A DNA stretch of 64,000 nt, taken from NCBI GenBank assembly GCA_949130485.1, contig OX422203.1:186001-250000 (forward strand), read 5' to 3'. Origin of the DNA: Agelas oroides (Eukaryota > Porifera > Demospongiae > Agelasida > Agelasidae). Under the pieces are notes generated by a model. The model was not told the origin of the DNA, did not search any database, and was given only the letters and a program-made list of their open reading frames with translations. The translations under genes were made by a program, and so were the position numbers. Of this stretch, positions 47,800 to 56,432 are shown in pieces (within the stretch, counting starts at the first letter, position 1; every line of letters starts with the position of its first letter).

Positions 47800-49925
47800 T
47801 CTGTTAGCTGCTACCTTTGATTTTTGACTATAGTTGATTTGTGGACTATAAGAAATGTACATGCAAGTGAAATAATTCAATCAATCACAATTGTTATTAT
47901 TGTCATTATAATTATCACAACAATACAATGAAGAAATAGATGAAAAGCGCTTCCAAGAAACAGATTTAGGCATGTGGTCATGTGTCAGCAGTTCCAGGCT
48001 GCAAGCTCACAAGTAGAGTTATTGGTTTTATCAACTTACAACGTTCGCGATTTGGGGCCTGGGAGGGTCCACATATCACTAGCATTTTGGGCCTGGGGGA
48101 CCCAAATTGCGGAGGACCCCATATCGTGCTTACACCGGTCAATACTTTGATGACTGCATTTGTCGCACAATTGCAAAAAAGTGATACACTATTGTAACAA
48201 AAAAACACTGCAGACAAACTCAGCAAGGTATGAAGATAAACTACTCTATCTGTACTTGAAGCAGCTACTGTTATCCTCTGCTCAAGGTAGTAAGTACATA
48301 GCTTTTACTGGTGTGTTAACCCAACCACAAAACTTCGCAACGTACTTAGCAACAGTAAAAACACTTAATGCTTGCTCTCTTCTGTCCAGTATTCTAAGTA
48401 GGTACCTCTTTCATTAGCAACTGGATTCATGTGCACATAACTTTGCCTCAAAAATATGCAGACATAATAACAGCATGGCCTGAACAGCCAGCAACAAAGG
48501 AAGGGTAAGAAAACTACTACATGCTGATAACTAGCAGTGCATGGCTTGCTGGTTAATTAAAAATAAGGTTTCAGATAATCTAAAGTGGAGCTGAGTGGCC
48601 TGTACTAATCACAATCTCTCAAGAAAGGAGGAGCCTGCCACTATCAATTTGCATCTATTTGCATCTATTTGCACCCACAGGCCAGACAGTGGTTAGCTGC
48701 AGCTAAATTAATAGGAAATCTTACCCCCTCACACTCCCTGGTGAGAGGACACTAAAACTAGTACCAAGAACTAGAACCAACCTCACCACTGTACAAGTTG
48801 CTATAGAAATGTGCTGTCGCTGCTACTGATGTGGGAGAGAGATGCCTAGAAATAAAAGATAACCCGCAGTCTTGCTAGGACTACAACCGCTAAGAGGCAG
48901 GCAGACCTGCTCAGGAGAGGTAACAGCTGGTTTTAAGACATTTCACATTTATCATTTTGTTTGTTGGTGCTCGCACTCATTTGTGTGTTGAACTTCGTAT
49001 TTCAGTATTTCGTTCTTACAGGTGAGGAGAACCACTGATACTGCAAACTAGTAACAACGTAAACCACACTTGCGCGCCCATGGTACAATGTTCAAACCAC
49101 TGCCGCGCGCAACATGCACACAACACAACGCTGTATTGTATATATGCAGTAAGGTTAAAACCTTACCTGACAATGTTCAGGCTCAGGTTGTTTGTAGTGC
49201 TCCTCCGAGCGTTGCTGCAATAATATTTCTGCCGGCTGTAAAAAGTGGGAGAAGGGCATGAGCAGAATAAGTGTTTGAGGCCACCACGCGCGCAAAAGCA
49301 AAAGGGGTATATATAAATATTAAACAGTCTGCACCATTTATTTCCCAGATCCAGTGCCAGACATTCCTGCTACATTTTGTTGAACCATTTCCAATATTCC
49401 ATCCTCGTTCTCAGACCTTCCCAACCGTCCCGAATAATTTATGTGGACATCAGTAAGATTATACTGACTTCGTCGTTCCCAGAAGACCGGCCAGCTTCCG
49501 TCGCTTATAGTAGTCGTCTCGTACCAAGCCATCTCACCGCCGGCCCTGACAAGTGTACTTTTAGCGGAAATTCACGCATGTAGTAACAGCATACGAGACT
49601 GACGCAGGCTGCTTGAACTTGGCCTCGGGAACGAGGCTAGCTTTAGCTATTATAGTATGCAGGTTATGAATATCAATTTGCGACCTAAAAAGTGTAGCGG
49701 CCAAAGCCGCTACGGCCGCCATGGTTCCTACGCCACTGCACAACAAAATCATGCAGCCTAAAATACTTGCGCAATTTGCGCCTAATATACTTGCAATTTC
49801 TAGTGCAACTCACCCATAGTTTTTTTGTAACACTCTTCCTCCCCGTGCTGACACTGAAAAAGCTGTGTAACGGAAAGGGAGACTAAGGTAGTTCTCCACA
49901 CCTGCACGAGACCACCTGCGAAGAG
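47800..49925. other. intergenic region without recognised genes
   Basis: AT-richer sequence with short frames only. A diverged GGGCCTGGG...GACCC inverted/direct repeat lies at about 48050-48120. A fragment of the TAGCCTCG foldback family (GGGAACGAGGCTAGC) lies near 49628. Confidence 0.4.
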
Positions 49926-50042
49926 AATAGTTCAATAACATACAGAAAATGTGCAAAGTTTGAACACACAAACGAGCGCGGAATAGTTCAATAACATACA
50001 GAAAATATGCAAAGTTTGAACACACAAACGAGCGCGAGCAAC
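49925..50042. repeat. tandem duplication of about 58 bp
   Basis: GAATAGTTCAATAACATACAGAAAAT... to CACAAACGAGCGCG occurs twice with one substitution, upstream of CPT2. Confidence 0.9.
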
Positions 50043-50269
50043 AACCGCCAAAATGATAAACTACCTTCAAGCCACGTTCGCCGACACACAGTGAATTCTG
50101 AAGTAAGACTAAAACACTACACGTGGTGGAGGTTTTATTATGCGGACGAGCGGAGCAGGTGCGCTAGCTGACCACGCCCTATACGTAATCGTCGGCCGCG
50201 GTTCCGTTCCAAGCAAAAATGGCCGAGGGGTCCGTCACGGCGCGGTTCGGCGTACGAGATTTCGAAATC

Positions 50270-50487
50270 CAGTGGATTTCAGGTGGATTTCTGGATTTCA
50301 GTTTGGATTTCTGGATTTCTGGATTTCAAAGTGGATTTCTGGATTTCAAAGTGGATTTCTGGATTTCAAAGTGGATTTCTGGATTTCAAAGTGGATTTCT
50401 GGATTTCAAGTGGATTTCTGGATTTCAAAGTGGATTTCTGGATTTCAAGCGGATTTCTGGATTTCAAAGCGGATTTCTGGATTTCGC
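50270..50487. repeat. 20-bp minisatellite inside the TIR element (left array)
   Basis: About ten units of GTGGATTTCTGGATTTCAAA type. Open frames DFWISKWISGF through it are repeat products. Confidence 0.95.
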
Positions 50488-50772
50488 TATTTCTGAAGAT
50501 ACAGCTAAAATATACTCATGAACAATCATGAACCACATTCCTCTCAGCCTATATGCTAACAGAATACAATGTCACAGGCAGTTCACCGCTACATAGCGCA
50601 TAGGCAGCGTGTTCGTTGATTGTCATACATATACATACGCATACTGCGTGTTCGTTGTCATACATATTCATACGCATACTGCGTGTTAGTTTACATACAT
50701 ATTCATACCGTACTGCATGTTCGTCATACATAAATTAATACATCTGACAATTGCAATTACAGCACCTTGGAA

Positions 50773-50823
50773 GAATGACCTTTGTACCCGACCGCGAAAT
50801 TCGGCCGGGTACAAAGGTCATTC
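50773..50823. repeat. palindrome with 18-bp perfect arms
   Basis: GAATGACCTTTGTACCCG and its exact reverse complement are separated by 15 bp, within the TIR element. It may be an independent nested hairpin element. Confidence 0.85.
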
Positions 50824-50929
50824 ATTGTGGTGACGTTCTATTACGTCATAGAAAATCGGTGCACGTGCACGTCCTTGTAGTGTAATTAATGTAAAGTATA
50901 CGGATATTTGCGGAGTATTTTAATAGAAT

Positions 50930-51112
50930 CCTGGATTGGATTTCCGGATTTTAGATTGGATTTCCGGATTTTAGAGTGGATTTCCGGATTTTAGAGTGGA
51001 TTTCCGGATTTCAGTGGATTTCTGGATTTCAGAGTGGATTTCTGGATTTCAGATTGGATTTCTGGATTTCATAGTGGATTTCTGGATTTCTGGATTTCAG
51101 TTTGGATTTCTG
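50930..51112. repeat. 20-bp minisatellite inside the TIR element (right array)
   Basis: About nine units of GATTGGATTTCCGGATTTTA/GTGGATTTCTGGATTTCAGA, a diverged version of the left array in the same orientation. Confidence 0.9.
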
Positions 51113-51154
51113 CCGACGGTGTACGAGATTTCTTTCGTGACGGACCCCTCGAAA

Positions 51155-53006
51155 ATGGCCCTAAACTTCATTGGGCAGTCAAGACCGGTGAGTCACCGTG
51201 AGCTTGCTGTATTAGCTTGCTGTATTAGCTAGCCTGCTACACAAGCATCCCGTTCCCCACCTCCCTAGTCTAGCCCCAGATTCTCCCACCCCTTGAGTTT
51301 GTTTTTTTTTGTCCAGTGATTTCATGACCCCGCCCCCCTCCCTTCCTGTAGCTCTCCAACTCCAGATGGCTGATCCCTGTCTTGCAGTGTTGCAGTCACC
51401 GTATCAGGTGTGTAGTGGCAGTAGTCGGAACCCGGGACCTGTCACATTTGATTTGGACCCCACTAAAATTGGTTTGCCCCGGAACGTATTTTACCTGTAG
51501 AGGGTCTGGGGTCTGTCTCACAAGCCAGAGCCAACTGAAGGTTACCAATCACTGTAGTGATCATGAAAGCGATCCTGTTGTGGTGGCTTGGAGTCTGGCA
51601 TGTGAGACTAGGTCCCGACTATGGTGTAGCCTCAGTAGAATGACCACACTGTCTTTATGCCTGTCTGTCCATCTTCCAGCACAACTCCCACTGTAACTGC
51701 TAGTGACCATGAGGAGCGATACATTCAGTACAGCAAGGTGCCTACTCTCCACTTCCAGCCCAGCCTGCCCCGCCTCCCAATCCCCAAACTATTGGACAGT
51801 TGCCAGCGCTACCTCGCTGCCCTCCAGCCTCTGGTGACGCCTGAACAACACCAGCACACCAAGACAATTGTGGAGGAGTTTGGGAGGGAGGGCGGAGAGG
51901 GAGAAGGTAGGTAAGATTACTGAACCACTTCTCAACAGGAGTCTGCATACGTTCAAACTGCATACCCTAGTAGATACTACATTAGAGACCCCAGTTTCCT
52001 GCAACTGCTGGCAGGAGTGCCAGACCTGACAGGCTGTGGGGCAATTGTGGCTGGGCAAACAGTCTAGACTCGTTCCAACTTTGTTTAGATCATCATCAGT
52101 AGACACATCCTTCATCCCCCCCCACCCCCCACCCCACCACCCCCCCAGTAGACACATCCTTCACCACCCCCCCCAGTAGACACAAGGAGAGGCAACTGCA
52201 TACCTTGTAACATGTTAGCCTCTGGTTGCTCCTCTAAGCTATTTCCATCTGCTATCAAGTTCCCCCCTCTTCCCACTTCCTCCAGCTCTGAACCGCAGGC
52301 TGATTCTGAAAGACTCGGAGAACAAACACACCAGCTACATTGCTGGTGAGCACCCGTGGGAAGATCGTATATCATGACTAGAGCTCCTTCCCCCCTCGTT
52401 CTCCTCTTTCACTCCCCTTCCTCATCCCTCCTACCTCCCTCCTCTCTCACTCCCCTCCTCCCCTCTCCTCCCTTCCTCCCTCCTACCTCCCCTCCTTATC
52501 CCTCCTACCTCACTCCCCTCCTCTCCTCCCCTCTCCTCCCTTCCTCCCTCACTCCCCTCATCCCTCACTTCCCCTCCAGGTCCTTGGTATGAGATGTATC
52601 TTGCTTCCCGAGATCCACTGGTACTGAACTTCAATCCTTTCATGGCCTTCAAAAATGACCCACGCACAACTGACCAGGTACACTCGAGTGTTAAACCATC
52701 AGGTGAACTTTCAAGTGCTTCACAGTATGCTCCATGCTAACTCTTCTTCCTCCCCAGGCAGACAGGGCGGCTAACTTCATTCGCTCTGCTGTAAGGTTTC
52801 GTGCCTCGCTACTGGCAAACAAGTTGGAGCCGGAAGTCTTCCACTTAAATCCTCAACGCTCCGACACACAACGCTTCAGAAACATTGTTAGGTACACACA
52901 TTGACACAACCAATCCTCCCTATCTGCCTCCCACCCTCTCTATCTCCCTCCTCCTCCCTCTTCCCTCCCATCTTTAAATAGACAGCTTATATCCACACAC
53001 AAACAC

Positions 53007-53041
<35 letters not shown>

Positions 53042-55644
53042 CACACACATACATAGGTTTGTTCCAAGCACCTTCTCATGGTACGCAGCCTACCTGATGA
53101 AAGCATTTCCTCTGGACATGAGTCAGTATTCACGGCTGTTTAACTCCACGCGTCTTCCTCGACCATCCATTGATGAACTTGTCTCCTTTGACAACCAGAG
53201 GCATGTGGTGGTCTTGAGGAATGGACACTTTTACACCCTTGACGCTGTCCAGCCTTGTGGTCAGTAAGCCCTGTATCCTGTGAGCCCACCCTCTCTCCTG
53301 TGTGTTTGTATCCTGTGAGCCCACCCTCTGTCCTGTGTGTTCAGTGTCCTGTGAGCCCACCTCTGTCCTGTGTGTTCAGTGTCCTGTGAGCCCACCCTCT
53401 GTCCTGTGTGTTCAGTGTCCTGTGAGCCCACCCTGTGTCCTGTGTGTTCAGTGTCCTGTGAGCCCACCCTCTGTCCTGTGTGTTCAGTGTCCTGTGAGCC
53501 CACCTCTGTCCTGTGTGTTCAGTGTCCTGTGAGCCCACCCTCTGTCCTGTGTGTTCAGTGTCCTGTGAGCCCACCCTGTGTCCTGTGTGTTCAGTGTCCT
53601 GTGAGCCCACCCTCTGTCCTGTGTGTTCAGTGTCCTGTGAGCCCACCCTGTGTCCTGCGTGTTCAGTATCCTGTGAGCCCACCTTCTGTCCTGTGTGTTC
53701 AGTGTCCTGTGAGCCCACCCTGTGTCCTGTGTGTTCAGTGTCCTGTGAGCCCACCCTCTGTCCTGCGTGTTCAGTGTCCTGTGAGCCCACCCTGTGTCCT
53801 GTGTGTTCAGTGTCCTGTGAGCCCACCCTCTGTCCTGTGTGTTCAGTGTCCTGTGACCAACATGTGTCCTGTGTGTTCAGTGTCCTGTGACCAACATGTG
53901 CAGAGAATGGTGAACATAATTAGCATCAATTGTCTTCCTCCATGTGTTACAGACAACCCAAATGTTTTCACAAACAATTTTTATTTATTAGAGCTACAAT
54001 GATATGACAATGTAGTCTGGTAATGTATGAATTTTGTTTTCAGCTGTTCTGTTTAACAGCTGTGATAATCCATTGAAAATTCCGTATATGAGATGCCGTT
54101 GTCAAGCACCTTAAGGTCTAGCCTCGTCCCCAGGCCCGTTCGAAAAATCGGAGAAAAGGGCCTGGTATCCACTGTTCGCGCATGCGCTTAATTTCCCGAC
54201 ATTCCGGGAATTCCGGATAATACCGTGTTACCTCCGCGTGTCGTGGCAAAGGGCTAGGAGAGCAGCGCTCGCCTCTTTGGCGTTATACTATAAAAGCCCA
54301 TATGCCATATATGAACGTCATAGTTCATAACCACATGATGTTGGTCGTCATTTGACACATCCTTGCACAATTTCACGTGAGCTGTACGCACTAATTAAGC
54401 GCATGCGCGAACAGTGGATACCAGGCCCTCTTCTCCGATTTTTCGAACGGGCCTGGGGACGAGGCTACTTAAGGTCATTAGTGTACAGATATTCGTACAA
54501 AACAAACACAGGTCTACTTGACTATCTAAACAATAATCATCATGCTGCCACACATACACATTCCACTGAACACATCGGTAACAGGTGATTACGGAACTAC
54601 ACACTCTTACTCTAGCTGCCCGTTATTATGCGCTCTTGGTGTAAGGTATGCCCTCATTGAAAGCCTCTCCCACCCCCCAGCCTCTCTCACCCCCCAACTT
54701 TCATTGCATGCGGTTTACTGCAAGCAATGAAAGTTGCAATGAAGTCGCTGTTCCTTGCGTTAGGCTCAATCTGTGTGTATCTGTGTTCCTCCAGGCCTCC
54801 CCACCCCTCCCTCCCTGGTCCACTCCCAGCTACTGTGGATTTTATCTGACCCCACTCCTTCCCCCTCACATCCCCTCGGCTATCTCACCGCTATCGACCG
54901 TGATTGCTGGGCAGGACTGCGTGAGGAGCTGGTGGCACAAGAACGGAACCGCAGAGCAGTGGAGAAGATTGATAGCGCCCTCTTTGTGCTGTGTTTGGAC
55001 GATCATGAACCAACAACTCCACTTGACGTCTCACACACATTTCTGCACAACTATGGAGCTAACAGGTGGCACCCTGGTGTGTGCATTAGTGTACATTGAT
55101 TTAGAGCACCCTCTTTCCTCTCTTCTCCCTCCCTTCCCTCCTTCCCTCCTCCTCCCATTGCAGGTGGTTTGACAAGTCCTTCTCTCTGATTGTGACCAAG
55201 GGTGGACTGTCGGCTGTCAACTTTGAGCATGCCTGGGGAGATGGAGTGGCTGTACTAAGATTCTTCAATGAGGTATGGAGGAGCAAAGACAGTTAAAATG
55301 TCCATTGATTTCATGATGGTACTTCTCTCTTTGTGTCAGGTGTTCAAGGACACCACGCAACAAAGTCCGTATGTCCCTGATGGTGATGTTGTCCCCTGCA
55401 GTGATGGTGTGGAGCGACTGACATTCGACCTCTCCCCAAGGTTGCAGTCAGCCGTTGAGACAGCAAGGGAGGAGGTGGAGGGGAAGACAAGGGCGCTGCA
55501 CTTTGACACACTCCAGTATGAGCAGTACGGAAAGGACTTTATAAAACAGAAGAACCTGAGTCCTGACGCCATTATGCAGCTCGCGTTCCAGGTAGACTAC
55601 TGTCTCTCCCTTCCGATGGCATACTTCCTCAAGATACTCTCATT

Positions 55645-55689
<45 letters not shown>

Positions 55690-56432
55690 TTTACCCATGC
55701 AGATGGCTTATTACCGGCAGTTCAAGTGCAGTGTACCCAGTTATGAATCCTGCAGTACTGCTGCATTCCGACATGGCCGCACGGAGACCATTCGACCAGC
55801 CAGCATGGCTACCAAGACCTGTGCTGAGGCATTTGAACATTCGCACCCAGCTGGAGTCGAGGAGATGGAGAAGTTGGTGAGGCAGGCAAGCACCTGGCAC
55901 TTCAAGCTGACCAAAGAGGCAGCCATGGGTAAGAGAGGAGGGAGAAAGGGGGTGTAGACAGATAGGTGAGGTTCATTTCCCCTTTCTGCTTGCAAGGTGC
56001 AAGGCTATGGATGGTAGAAGGGATGGGATGAAGAGAGAGAAAGGAGAAGGGGGGTATAGATCCATGCTAAATGGAACTTTCTTACTACTCTATTCAGGTC
56101 AAGGATTTGATCGCCATCTCTTTGCACTGAAGACACTGGCGACAGCCGAGGGGTTGTCCCCACCAATCTTCCAGGACCCCTCCTACTCCCATATCTGCCA
56201 CATCATCCTCTCCACCAGTACACTGTCGTCCGATGCCGTGCTAATTGGAGGGTTTGCCCCGGTCACCCCAGATGGCTATGGTGTTGGGTACGGTGTTCAT
56301 GATGACTGGTTGGGGACCCAGGTTGCAACATACCCCACATGCGACGGAGAAGAATTTGTTGCAAATATAAAGAATGCACTCGATAACATTCACAACGTCC
56401 TGAATGGAAGGAACTTTAAGGAAAGCAAATAG
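51155..56432 (+). CDS. CPT2: carnitine O-palmitoyltransferase 2, mitochondrial
   Basis: Inner-membrane enzyme that converts acylcarnitine and CoA to acyl-CoA and carnitine in the matrix, the last step of the carnitine shuttle. Twelve exons: 51155-51187, 51352-51407, 51680-51906, 52286-52345, 52580-52677, 52758-52891, 53057-53259, 54795-55065, 55164-55272, 55340-55591, 55703-55928 and 56098-56432, in phase to 667 aa (human 658). The first two exons give a basic presequence ([20 protein letters not shown]) without acidic residues, which supports the chosen ATG. Then [38 protein letters not shown], the catalytic histidine in FEHAWGDG (His383), [15 protein letters not shown]-like [19 protein letters not shown], and [18 protein letters not shown]. 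Exon 7 uses the weaker donor GTCAGT, required by phase. A TIR element lies directly upstream of the ATG; intron 7 holds a minisatellite and a MITE. Confidence 0.97.
53268..53895. repeat. about 36-bp minisatellite in CPT2 intron 7
   Basis: About seventeen units with TGTCCTGTGAGCCCACCCTC and TGTCCTGTGTGTTCAG, starting a few bases after the exon 7 donor. Cysteine-rich open frames through it are artefacts. Confidence 0.95.
54119..54467. mobile_element. 349-bp MITE with long terminal repeats and 9-bp target duplication
   Basis: The terminal inverted repeats of about 80 bp start TAGCCTCGTCCCCAGGCCCG and run to the GCGCATGCGC region. CTTAAGGTC flanks both ends exactly (54110-54118 and 54468-54476). 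It lies in CPT2 intron 7 and is the best-preserved member of the family in this window. Confidence 0.93.
55650..55685. repeat. (CA)n microsatellite
   Basis: Dinucleotide run in CPT2 intron 10, close to the ac-ceptor of exon 11. Confidence 0.95.

What the first reader, a model, noticed from the sequence alone, without database searches (positions are those of the whole stretch)
50216..51187. Transposable element inserted exactly at the CPT2 start codon, with the ATG inside the target duplication
The 927-bp element has 15-16 bp terminal inverted repeats and is flanked by the direct repeat AAAATGGCC. The right copy supplies the ATG and second codon of CPT2 (ATGGCC CTA AAC...). The left copy keeps an ATG next to the GC-rich ancestral 5' flank. 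The insertion therefore separated promoter and coding region without destroying the start. Transcripts from the old promoter would meet the left ATG first, which opens a frame of about 100 codons through the minisatellite. Either the element supplies a promoter, it is spliced out, or translation is re-initiated.
Basis: partly seen in the sequence, partly recalled or inferred. Interest (0 to 1): 0.78.

Follow-up and report, generated by a model that had tools for sequence, protein, structure and literature searches.

The report
Young transposon on CPT2 start codon
A recently moved piece of mobile DNA landed on what is very probably the start signal of a mitochondrial fat-burning gene, and the short duplication it made left the gene with a usable start but pushed its presumed old promoter almost a thousand bases away.

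Summary
The element is 928 bp (50224-51151). It has perfect 16-bp terminal inverted repeats and an 8-bp (not 9-bp) target duplication, AAAATGGC. The TIR occurs 203 times exactly in the 259-Mb genome (control 0). 50 of 60 two-ended copies have perfect 8-bp duplications. No transposase was found in the copies examined; superfamily unresolved. It is young: 1 private substitution in 442 columns.

A 56-nt exon (51352-51407) restores the frame and gives an intact 12-exon, 667-aa CPT2 from ATG 51155, the best-scoring of five possible three-exon starts. A CPT2 paralogue on C17 supports that second exon and the intron phases, but leaves its own first exon uncertain.

The CpG-rich presumed promoter is now 936 bp from the start, behind nine upstream ATGs. 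Other copies lie in locally CpG-richer DNA (30 of 37, p about 1e-4), though only 2 of 37 flanks reach island level. Expression cannot be shown here; I favour a recent, probably segregating allele with altered or reduced output. It is a well-resolved example of a known kind of event.

The parts
50216..50223 (+). left copy of the 8-bp target-site duplication AAAATGGC; holds an ATG at 50219
50224..51151 (+). 928-bp non-autonomous DNA transposon, 16-bp perfect terminal inverted repeats at 50224-50239 and 51136-51151
50273..50485 (+). left minisatellite block of the element (about 20-bp unit TGGATTTCAAAGTGGATTTC)
50773..50823 (+). near-perfect hairpin, 22-nt arms (95% complementary) and 7-nt loop, shared by the family; no Rfam family over its threshold
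50937..51098 (+). right minisatellite block of the element
51152..51159 (+). right copy of the target-site duplication; supplies the probable CPT2 ATG (51155-51157) and two bases of codon 2
51155..51187 (+). CPT2 coding exon 1 (model), [11 protein letters not shown], donor CCG|GTGAGT
51352..51407 (+). CPT2 coding exon 2 (56 nt, model) that restores the frame; alternative in-frame acceptor at 51388
51680..56432 (+). CPT2 exons 3-12 with introns; rest of an intact 667-aa CPT2
49924..50223 (.). CpG-rich old 5' flank (CpG observed/expected 1.43), presumed ancestral CPT2 promoter

Best explanation
Shown: a young, non-autonomous DNA transposon of a multi-copy family with 16-bp inverted repeats and 8-bp target duplications inserted between a CpG-rich flank and an intact CPT2 coding region, at a site whose duplication holds an ATG. 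Well supported but not proved by transcripts: the gene-side ATG (51155) is the first codon of a 667-aa CPT2, so fill-in repair of the staggered cut gave both sides a start codon with its -4 to +5 context. Inferred: the family tends to enter or survive in CpG-richer, probably open DNA, which makes a hit at a gene start more likely. Inferred, most likely mechanism: the allele is recent and probably still segregating. Transcripts from the old promoter carry up to nine upstream ATGs and yield little CPT2. CPT2 is made mainly from transcripts that begin inside the element, or from which the element is spliced, at altered or lower output. A second CPT2-type gene on C17 and, if the animal is heterozygous, the empty allele soften the effect.
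For: TIR 203 exact matches genome-wide, control 0. 50 of 60 two-ended copies have a perfect 8-bp duplication, 3 more have one mismatch. 1 private substitution in 442 columns (median of the 40 rows 2); three other copies 99.8% identical in the middle part. The CPT2 model is GT-AG at all 11 introns, without a stop in 667 codons, 733.6 bits to rat CPT2. The frame-restoring exon is matched by 3 of 1000 shuffles. Of five three-exon starts with sites scoring 0 or more between 50100 and 51680, the 51155 model ranks first, 16.5 against 11.2 for the best one with another ATG. All 4 such models of the C17 paralogue share a 62-nt second exon and phases 0 then 2, as here with 56 nt. First 38 residues free of D/E with R10, R16, H27, R28. 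CpG observed/expected 1.43 upstream, 0.35 downstream. Copies sit in CpG-richer DNA than their surroundings: 17 of 20 (p 4.5e-4), 30 of 37 pooled.
Against: No transcript, methylation or population data exist here, so the expression part is inference. The assembly holds only the filled site, so segregation is not shown. The element itself is CpG-rich (1.19), so it may be a good promoter and output may be normal. Only 2 of 37 other copies have flanks with CpG observed/expected of 1 or more, so strong CpG islands are not the usual target; the bias could reflect retention; the first set of 18 gave only p 0.037. No other copy was checked for lying at a gene start. Copies were picked for similarity to the window copy or an exact TIR, which favours intact ends and a low private count. 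In the paralogue two other first exons score higher (9.3 and 7.6) than the one at 2376 (6.8), whose donor scores -0.8. Other window starts exist on paper: ATG 50775 inside the element (11.2) and ATG 50140 joined from an element donor. Splice scores use recalled general matrices.
Confidence: 0.77

Rival explanations
1. The element has become the CPT2 promoter: transcription starts in its CpG-rich right half, and the mRNA meets ATG 51155 first or nearly first.
For: Element CpG observed/expected 1.19, and 1.4-1.8 in 50550-50999. Its last upstream ATG is at 50889, so any start after that meets 51155 first. The family carries CRE-like TTACGTCA (38 of 40 rows) and CAAAGGTCA (39 of 40) in this half.
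Against: The motif names are recalled and function was not tested; nearly every position of this young family is conserved, so conservation proves nothing. No transcript data.
Confidence: 0.3
2. The element is removed as part of a new 5' UTR intron: donor in the old leader, acceptor in the right minisatellite, so the upstream ATGs from the donor onwards never reach the ribosome. A variant joins an element donor or ATG directly to CPT2 exon 2 or 3 and makes a chimeric N-terminus.
For: Donors at 50159 (CAG|GTGCGC, 3.5) and 50103 (GAA|GTAAGA, 3.0) and element acceptors up to 0.9 at 51101. Chimeric in-frame models exist, e.g. ATG 50775-donor 50817-exon 51352.
Against: The element acceptors score below 10 of the 11 CPT2 acceptors (1.6-8.6; one CPT2 acceptor, 53057, scores -4.0). 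With donor 50159 a start upstream of 50140 would still retain ATG 50140.
Confidence: 0.15
3. The true CPT2 start is elsewhere (ATG 51657 in exon 3, or an exon upstream of or inside the element), and the ATG in the duplication is irrelevant. Raised from 0.07 to 0.12 after one search showed the paralogue's first exon to be ambiguous.
For: ATG 51657 is in frame with exon 3. The direct exon 1-exon 3 join is out of frame. Alternative starts exist on paper, and the paralogue does not fix exon 1.
Against: The 56-nt exon fixes the frame with good sites and the 51155 model ranks first. The paralogue has a matching second exon and phases. The 51657 start has no basic residue before its first acidic one.
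Confidence: 0.12
4. The direct and inverted repeats are not an insertion but chance or a local rearrangement.
For: None found.
Against: 203 exact TIRs, control 0; 50 of 60 copies with perfect 8-bp duplications.
Confidence: 0.01

Closest known systems
Promoter-directed DNA transposons, Drosophila P and maize Mu (PMC7337890, passages read; Mu generates 9-bp duplications, PMC2774946, listing and start of abstract)
   Same: Short fixed-length duplications; reported insertion in open chromatin near 5' ends of genes; here a bias to locally CpG-richer sites.
   Different: No transposase linked to this family; distance to transcription starts not measured; duplication is 8 bp, not the 9 bp of Mu.
roo solo-LTR insertions in the CG18446 promoter of Drosophila (PMC4982627, abstract and section list)
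   Same: Transposable elements in a proximal promoter, two of which provided alternative transcription starts.
   Different: LTR retroelement with transcripts and phenotypes measured; placement on the start codon is not mentioned in what I saw.
MITE with an internal minisatellite: BrickBuilt of Porphyromonas gingivalis (PMC4596501, abstract); the foldback element Tetris of Drosophila virilis came up in the same search (PMC4079207, title and start of abstract only)
   Same: BrickBuilt: a minisatellite between small inverted ends, with promoter activity reported.
   Different: Bacterial, different sequence; here two minisatellite blocks flank a unique middle with a hairpin.
MITE in the maize PIP2;5 promoter (PMC11376376, passages)
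   Same: MITE near a start codon as a candidate expression variant.

Membership tests
Non-autonomous DNA transposon (MITE-like) | terminal inverted repeats shared by many copies | tested here: met
   16-bp TIR, 203 exact matches, reversed control 0
Non-autonomous DNA transposon (MITE-like) | fixed-length target-site duplication | tested here: met
   perfect 8 bp in 50 of 60 two-ended copies, 3 more with one mismatch, 7 with three or more
Non-autonomous DNA transposon (MITE-like) | no transposase gene | tested here: met
   none by eye in ORF lists for L024, L054, L056, L057, L069; Pfam on 6 of the 12 ORFs of 90 aa or more in L056 and L069 gave no family; the L024 ORF is a reverse transcriptase, PF00078, 140.1 bits. 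Other copies were not read for ORFs
Non-autonomous DNA transposon (MITE-like) | small size, usually under about 600-800 bp (recalled) | tested here: not met
   928 bp here; 46 of 60 two-ended copies are 700-1000 bp, 10 longer, 4 shorter
hAT superfamily | 8-bp target duplication | tested here: met
hAT superfamily | TIR beginning CA (recalled) and duplication like nTnnnnAn (recalled) | tested here: not met
   TIR begins CG; T at position 2 in 12 of 48 and A at position 7 in 18 of 48 unique sites
hAT superfamily | hAT transposase between the same TIRs | tested here: inconclusive
   150 hAT domain matches scored of 249 candidates; 0 of the 12 loci given hold the TIR within 4 mismatches
P superfamily | 8-bp duplication; P-type transposase between the same TIRs | tested here: inconclusive
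   duplication length fits; 11 PF21788 matches, 0 of the 4 loci given hold the TIR within 5 mismatches
Helitron | no TIR and no target duplication (recalled) | tested here: not met
   both present
CPT2 | carnitine acyltransferase family, closest to CPT2, with an N-terminal presequence | tested here: met
   PF00755 591.6 bits; rat CPT2 733.6 bits against 279.6 for the best non-CPT2 chain; residues 1-38 of the model without D/E; targeting itself not tested

The most novel reading that the evidence does not exclude
The family targets CpG-rich gene starts, and at CPT2 its conserved middle (CRE-like TTACGTCA, paired CAAAGGTCA nuclear-receptor-type half sites in a hairpin) now acts as the promoter. 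A single recent insertion would have replaced the control of a fatty-acid oxidation gene in one step while its own duplication rebuilt the start codon.
Probability: 0.08. Interest if true: 0.7.

Novelty: new member of a known kind. Interest (0 to 1): 0.42.

Why it matters
It is a clean snapshot of promoter displacement close to its first moment: the insertion is so young that the old flank, the duplicated ATG and the intact gene can all still be read. It makes a direct test possible of how a gene survives when a mobile element separates promoter from start codon without damaging the protein. The CpG bias of the family, in a CpG-depleted genome, hints at a preference for open DNA outside the well-studied P and Mu elements.

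Tried and rejected
A 9-bp duplication was rejected. A preference of the element for ATG was rejected: 10 of 48 unique sites, window included, hold ATG or CAT; 48 x 12/64 = 9 are expected.

A direct exon join 51187-51680 was rejected as out of frame. Acceptor 51639 and donor 51178 would fit the frame but score -6.6 and -6.4.

An autonomous partner was sought in long copies (L024 2828 bp, L056 4501 bp, L069 3756 bp) and by hAT and P-type domain searches. None was found. KDZ was asked once, not answered and not repeated. Merlin and MULE were not searched.

A hidden empty site was sought with both flanks: only the window itself matches over the full query. The hairpin was compared with Rfam: MIR5148 28.1 bits against a 93.5 cut-off, so rejected.

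Paper searches for a transposon on a start codon preserved by its own duplication listed 5, 2 and 4 papers, none with such a case in its title or the start of its abstract. This covers only the held open-licence library; of those papers I opened PMC11376376 (passages) and PMC4982627 (abstract and section list).

Full report
The window is bases 186001-250000 of contig C21 in an unnamed 259.3-Mb assembly of 141 contigs. The CPT2 gene and strong CpG depletion (window CpG observed/expected 0.36) fit an animal with a heavily methylated genome. A sponge is possible but was not tested; a review reports vertebrate-like methylation in Amphimedon (PMC9246332, passages).

The element. One search gives a perfect 16-nt inverted pair, 50224-50239 and 51136-51151. 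The pattern search found 203 exact copies of the TIR genome-wide and none of the reversed control (only the first 100 places were listed). A search with the 972-base stretch scored 40 of 779 first-look candidates; many are full-length at 84-95% identity. I scanned 68 stretches: the window, 7 loci, 40, and 20. In these, 60 elements have both ends within 4 mismatches: 50 have a perfect 8-bp duplication, 3 have one mismatch, and 7 have three or more. These stretches were chosen for similarity or an exact TIR, and where several right ends were possible the one with the best duplication was taken, so intact sites are over-represented. None of the 60 has a 9-bp duplication outside the TIRs, so the duplication is 8 bp and the element is 928 bp. 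46 of the 60 are 700-1000 bp long.

Anatomy. Two minisatellite blocks with a unit near TGGATTTC lie inside the ends. The middle holds a 22-nt-arm hairpin (folding energy z-score -6.8). ORF lists for L024, L054, L056, L057 and L069 show no recognisable transposase by eye. Pfam on 6 of the 12 long ORFs of L056 and L069 gave nothing; the 589-codon ORF inside L024 is a reverse transcriptase (PF00078, 140.1 bits), a nested insertion. Twelve hAT loci and four P-type loci from this genome lack the TIR. I therefore call it a non-autonomous element of unresolved superfamily; the 8-bp duplication is compatible with hAT or P.

Age. In the 442 well-aligned columns of the middle part, over 40 rows, the window copy has 3 deviations from the majority, 1 of them private. 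The medians are 5 and 2, and eight rows have no private change, so it is young but not the youngest. Three other copies are 99.8% identical to it. Both TIRs and both duplication copies are identical. Picking copies by similarity to the window copy lowers its private count somewhat.

Is 51155 the CPT2 start? The exon with CPT2 homology (51680-51906) needs a donor of phase 2. ATG 51155 with its strong donor at 51188 gives phase 0, and the direct join is out of frame. Searching the intron for an exon that fixes the frame gave 51352-51407 (acceptor 5.0, donor 5.4). 3 of 1000 dinucleotide shuffles do as well. Listing every three-exon start between 50100 and 51680 whose sites score 0 or more gives five; the 51155 model ranks first (16.5), its 51388 variant second (13.5), and models starting at 50775 inside the element (11.2, 8.1) or at 50140 (9.5) follow. 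Two two-exon starts that bypass 51155 (50140 and 50717) also exist with weak donors (2.4 and 0.2). The full model has 12 exons, all GT-AG, and 667 codons without a stop. Some of its sites score poorly with the recalled matrices (acceptor 53057 -4.0, donor 52892 -0.9). It aligns at 41-664 with rat CPT2 26-652, 733.6 bits, and with PF00755, 591.6 bits. The presequence has no D or E in its first 38 residues and R at 10, 16 and 28.

Check with a paralogue. After the model was fixed, a protein search of the genome found a second CPT2-type gene on C17:2516359-2522316, with pieces 41-59% identical. Its 5' end (L112) reads, with sites first picked by eye, as exons of 27, 62 and 224 nt against 33, 56 and 227 nt here, with the same phases 0, 2, 1. 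Its first 37 residues are free of D/E. When all three-exon models at or above its own site scores are listed, 4 remain. All 4 share the 62-nt second exon and the phases, but two use other first exons that score higher (9.3, 7.6) than the one at 2376/2379 (6.8). So the paralogue supports the second exon, favours acceptor 51352 over 51388 by length, and supports the phases; it does not fix the first exon. It has no exact TIR in the 4.7 kb read.

What the insertion did. Before it, the CpG-rich flank ran straight into AAAAATGGCC. CpG observed/expected is 1.43 in the 300 bases upstream, 1.19 in the element and 0.35 in the 300 bases downstream. Of 637 stretches of 300 bases in the window, 4 reach the upstream value, two of them inside the element and one overlapping that flank. 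That this flank is the old promoter is inference. Ten ATGs now lie from 50140 to 51155: 50140 (118 codons), 50219 (100 codons), seven inside the element, and 51155 itself. A scanning ribosome on a transcript starting before 50140 would meet nine before the right one. Transcripts that start after 50889 would meet 51155 first. Weak options for splicing the element out exist (donor 50159, acceptor 51101).

Why there? If the element inserted at random, one copy would cover a whole start codon with its 8-bp duplication with a probability of about 6 positions times 20,000-25,000 genes (assumed) over 259 Mb, near 0.0005. With 100-400 copies (a guess from 203 TIR ends and 779 candidates) the family would do so 0.05-0.2 times. 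The duplications show no ATG preference (10 of 48 unique sites). But the flanks are not average. In 18 copies the nearest 300 nt had a median CpG observed/expected of 0.735 against 0.545 at 600-1500 nt (p 0.037). In a separate 20 of the 40 loci, taken in list order with perfect duplications and compared with a far stretch on the left only, it was 0.77 against 0.49, higher near the element in 17 of 20 (p 0.00045). Pooled, with one duplicate locus dropped, it was 30 of 37 (p 0.00012). The value falls from 0.75-0.82 within 100 nt to 0.54 beyond 1000 nt (34 copies, 12 stretches in the far bins). Against a strong island preference, only 2 of 37 copies have flanks at 1.0 or more, so the CPT2 site is unusual even for the family. 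Targeting of, or survival in, CpG-richer open DNA would explain the trend. The bias was not tested against annotated gene starts.

Known relatives. P and Mu elements are reported to insert near the 5' ends of genes and Pol II initiation (PMC7337890, passages). Two roo insertions supply alternative start sites for a Drosophila gene (PMC4982627, abstract). A minisatellite-bearing MITE is known in a bacterium (PMC4596501, abstract). So the parts are known kinds; the family and the exact placement are new instances as far as searches show.

Change after checking. One search showed that the paralogue's first exon is ambiguous and that alternative starts exist on paper. I lowered the main confidence from 0.80 to 0.77 and raised the rival 'start elsewhere' from 0.07 to 0.12.

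Limits. No transcripts, no second individual, no relatives' genomes. Only the filled site is in the assembly. The expression mechanism is inference.

Noticed in passing
G000 C17:2516359-2522316 (5' part in L112 2376-3276): A second, diverged CPT2-type gene (pieces 41-59% identical) with the same 5' intron phases and a more basic presequence; possible redundancy for CPT2.
   Followed up: partly
L024 2301-5128: A 2828-bp copy of the same element contains a reverse-transcriptase ORF of 589 codons (PF00078, 140.1 bits) in its middle: a retroelement nested in the MITE.
   Followed up: yes
window 54117-54470 (CPT2 intron): An inverted repeat with arms of roughly 70 nt (CCCAGGCCCGTTCGAAAAATCGG...), read by eye, in a CpG-rich stretch; probably another small transposon.
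   Followed up: no
window 49606-49738: A dispersed repeat of about 135 bp with at least 39 other copies at 85-91% identity, upstream of the presumed old promoter.
   Followed up: no
L006 and L007; L032 and L033: Two pairs of element copies share the same target duplication and adjoining flanking bases, so they look like duplicated loci, not separate insertions.
   Followed up: no
window 50773-50823: Hairpin arms contain TGACCTTTG/CAAAGGTCA (37 and 39 of 40 family rows), a nuclear-receptor-like half site by recall; near-complete conservation of the young family makes this uninformative.
   Followed up: partly
window 50775-50816 and 50140-50282: In-frame chimeric CPT2 starts that use an ATG or a donor inside the element are possible on paper.
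   Followed up: partly
whole genome, e.g. C4:1133691 and C23:2197971: Many open hAT transposase frames (up to 907 codons) in this genome, so hAT elements may be active.
   Followed up: no
whole window: Very rich in tandem repeats: 145 tandem-repeat rows, some overlapping, in 64 kb.
   Followed up: no
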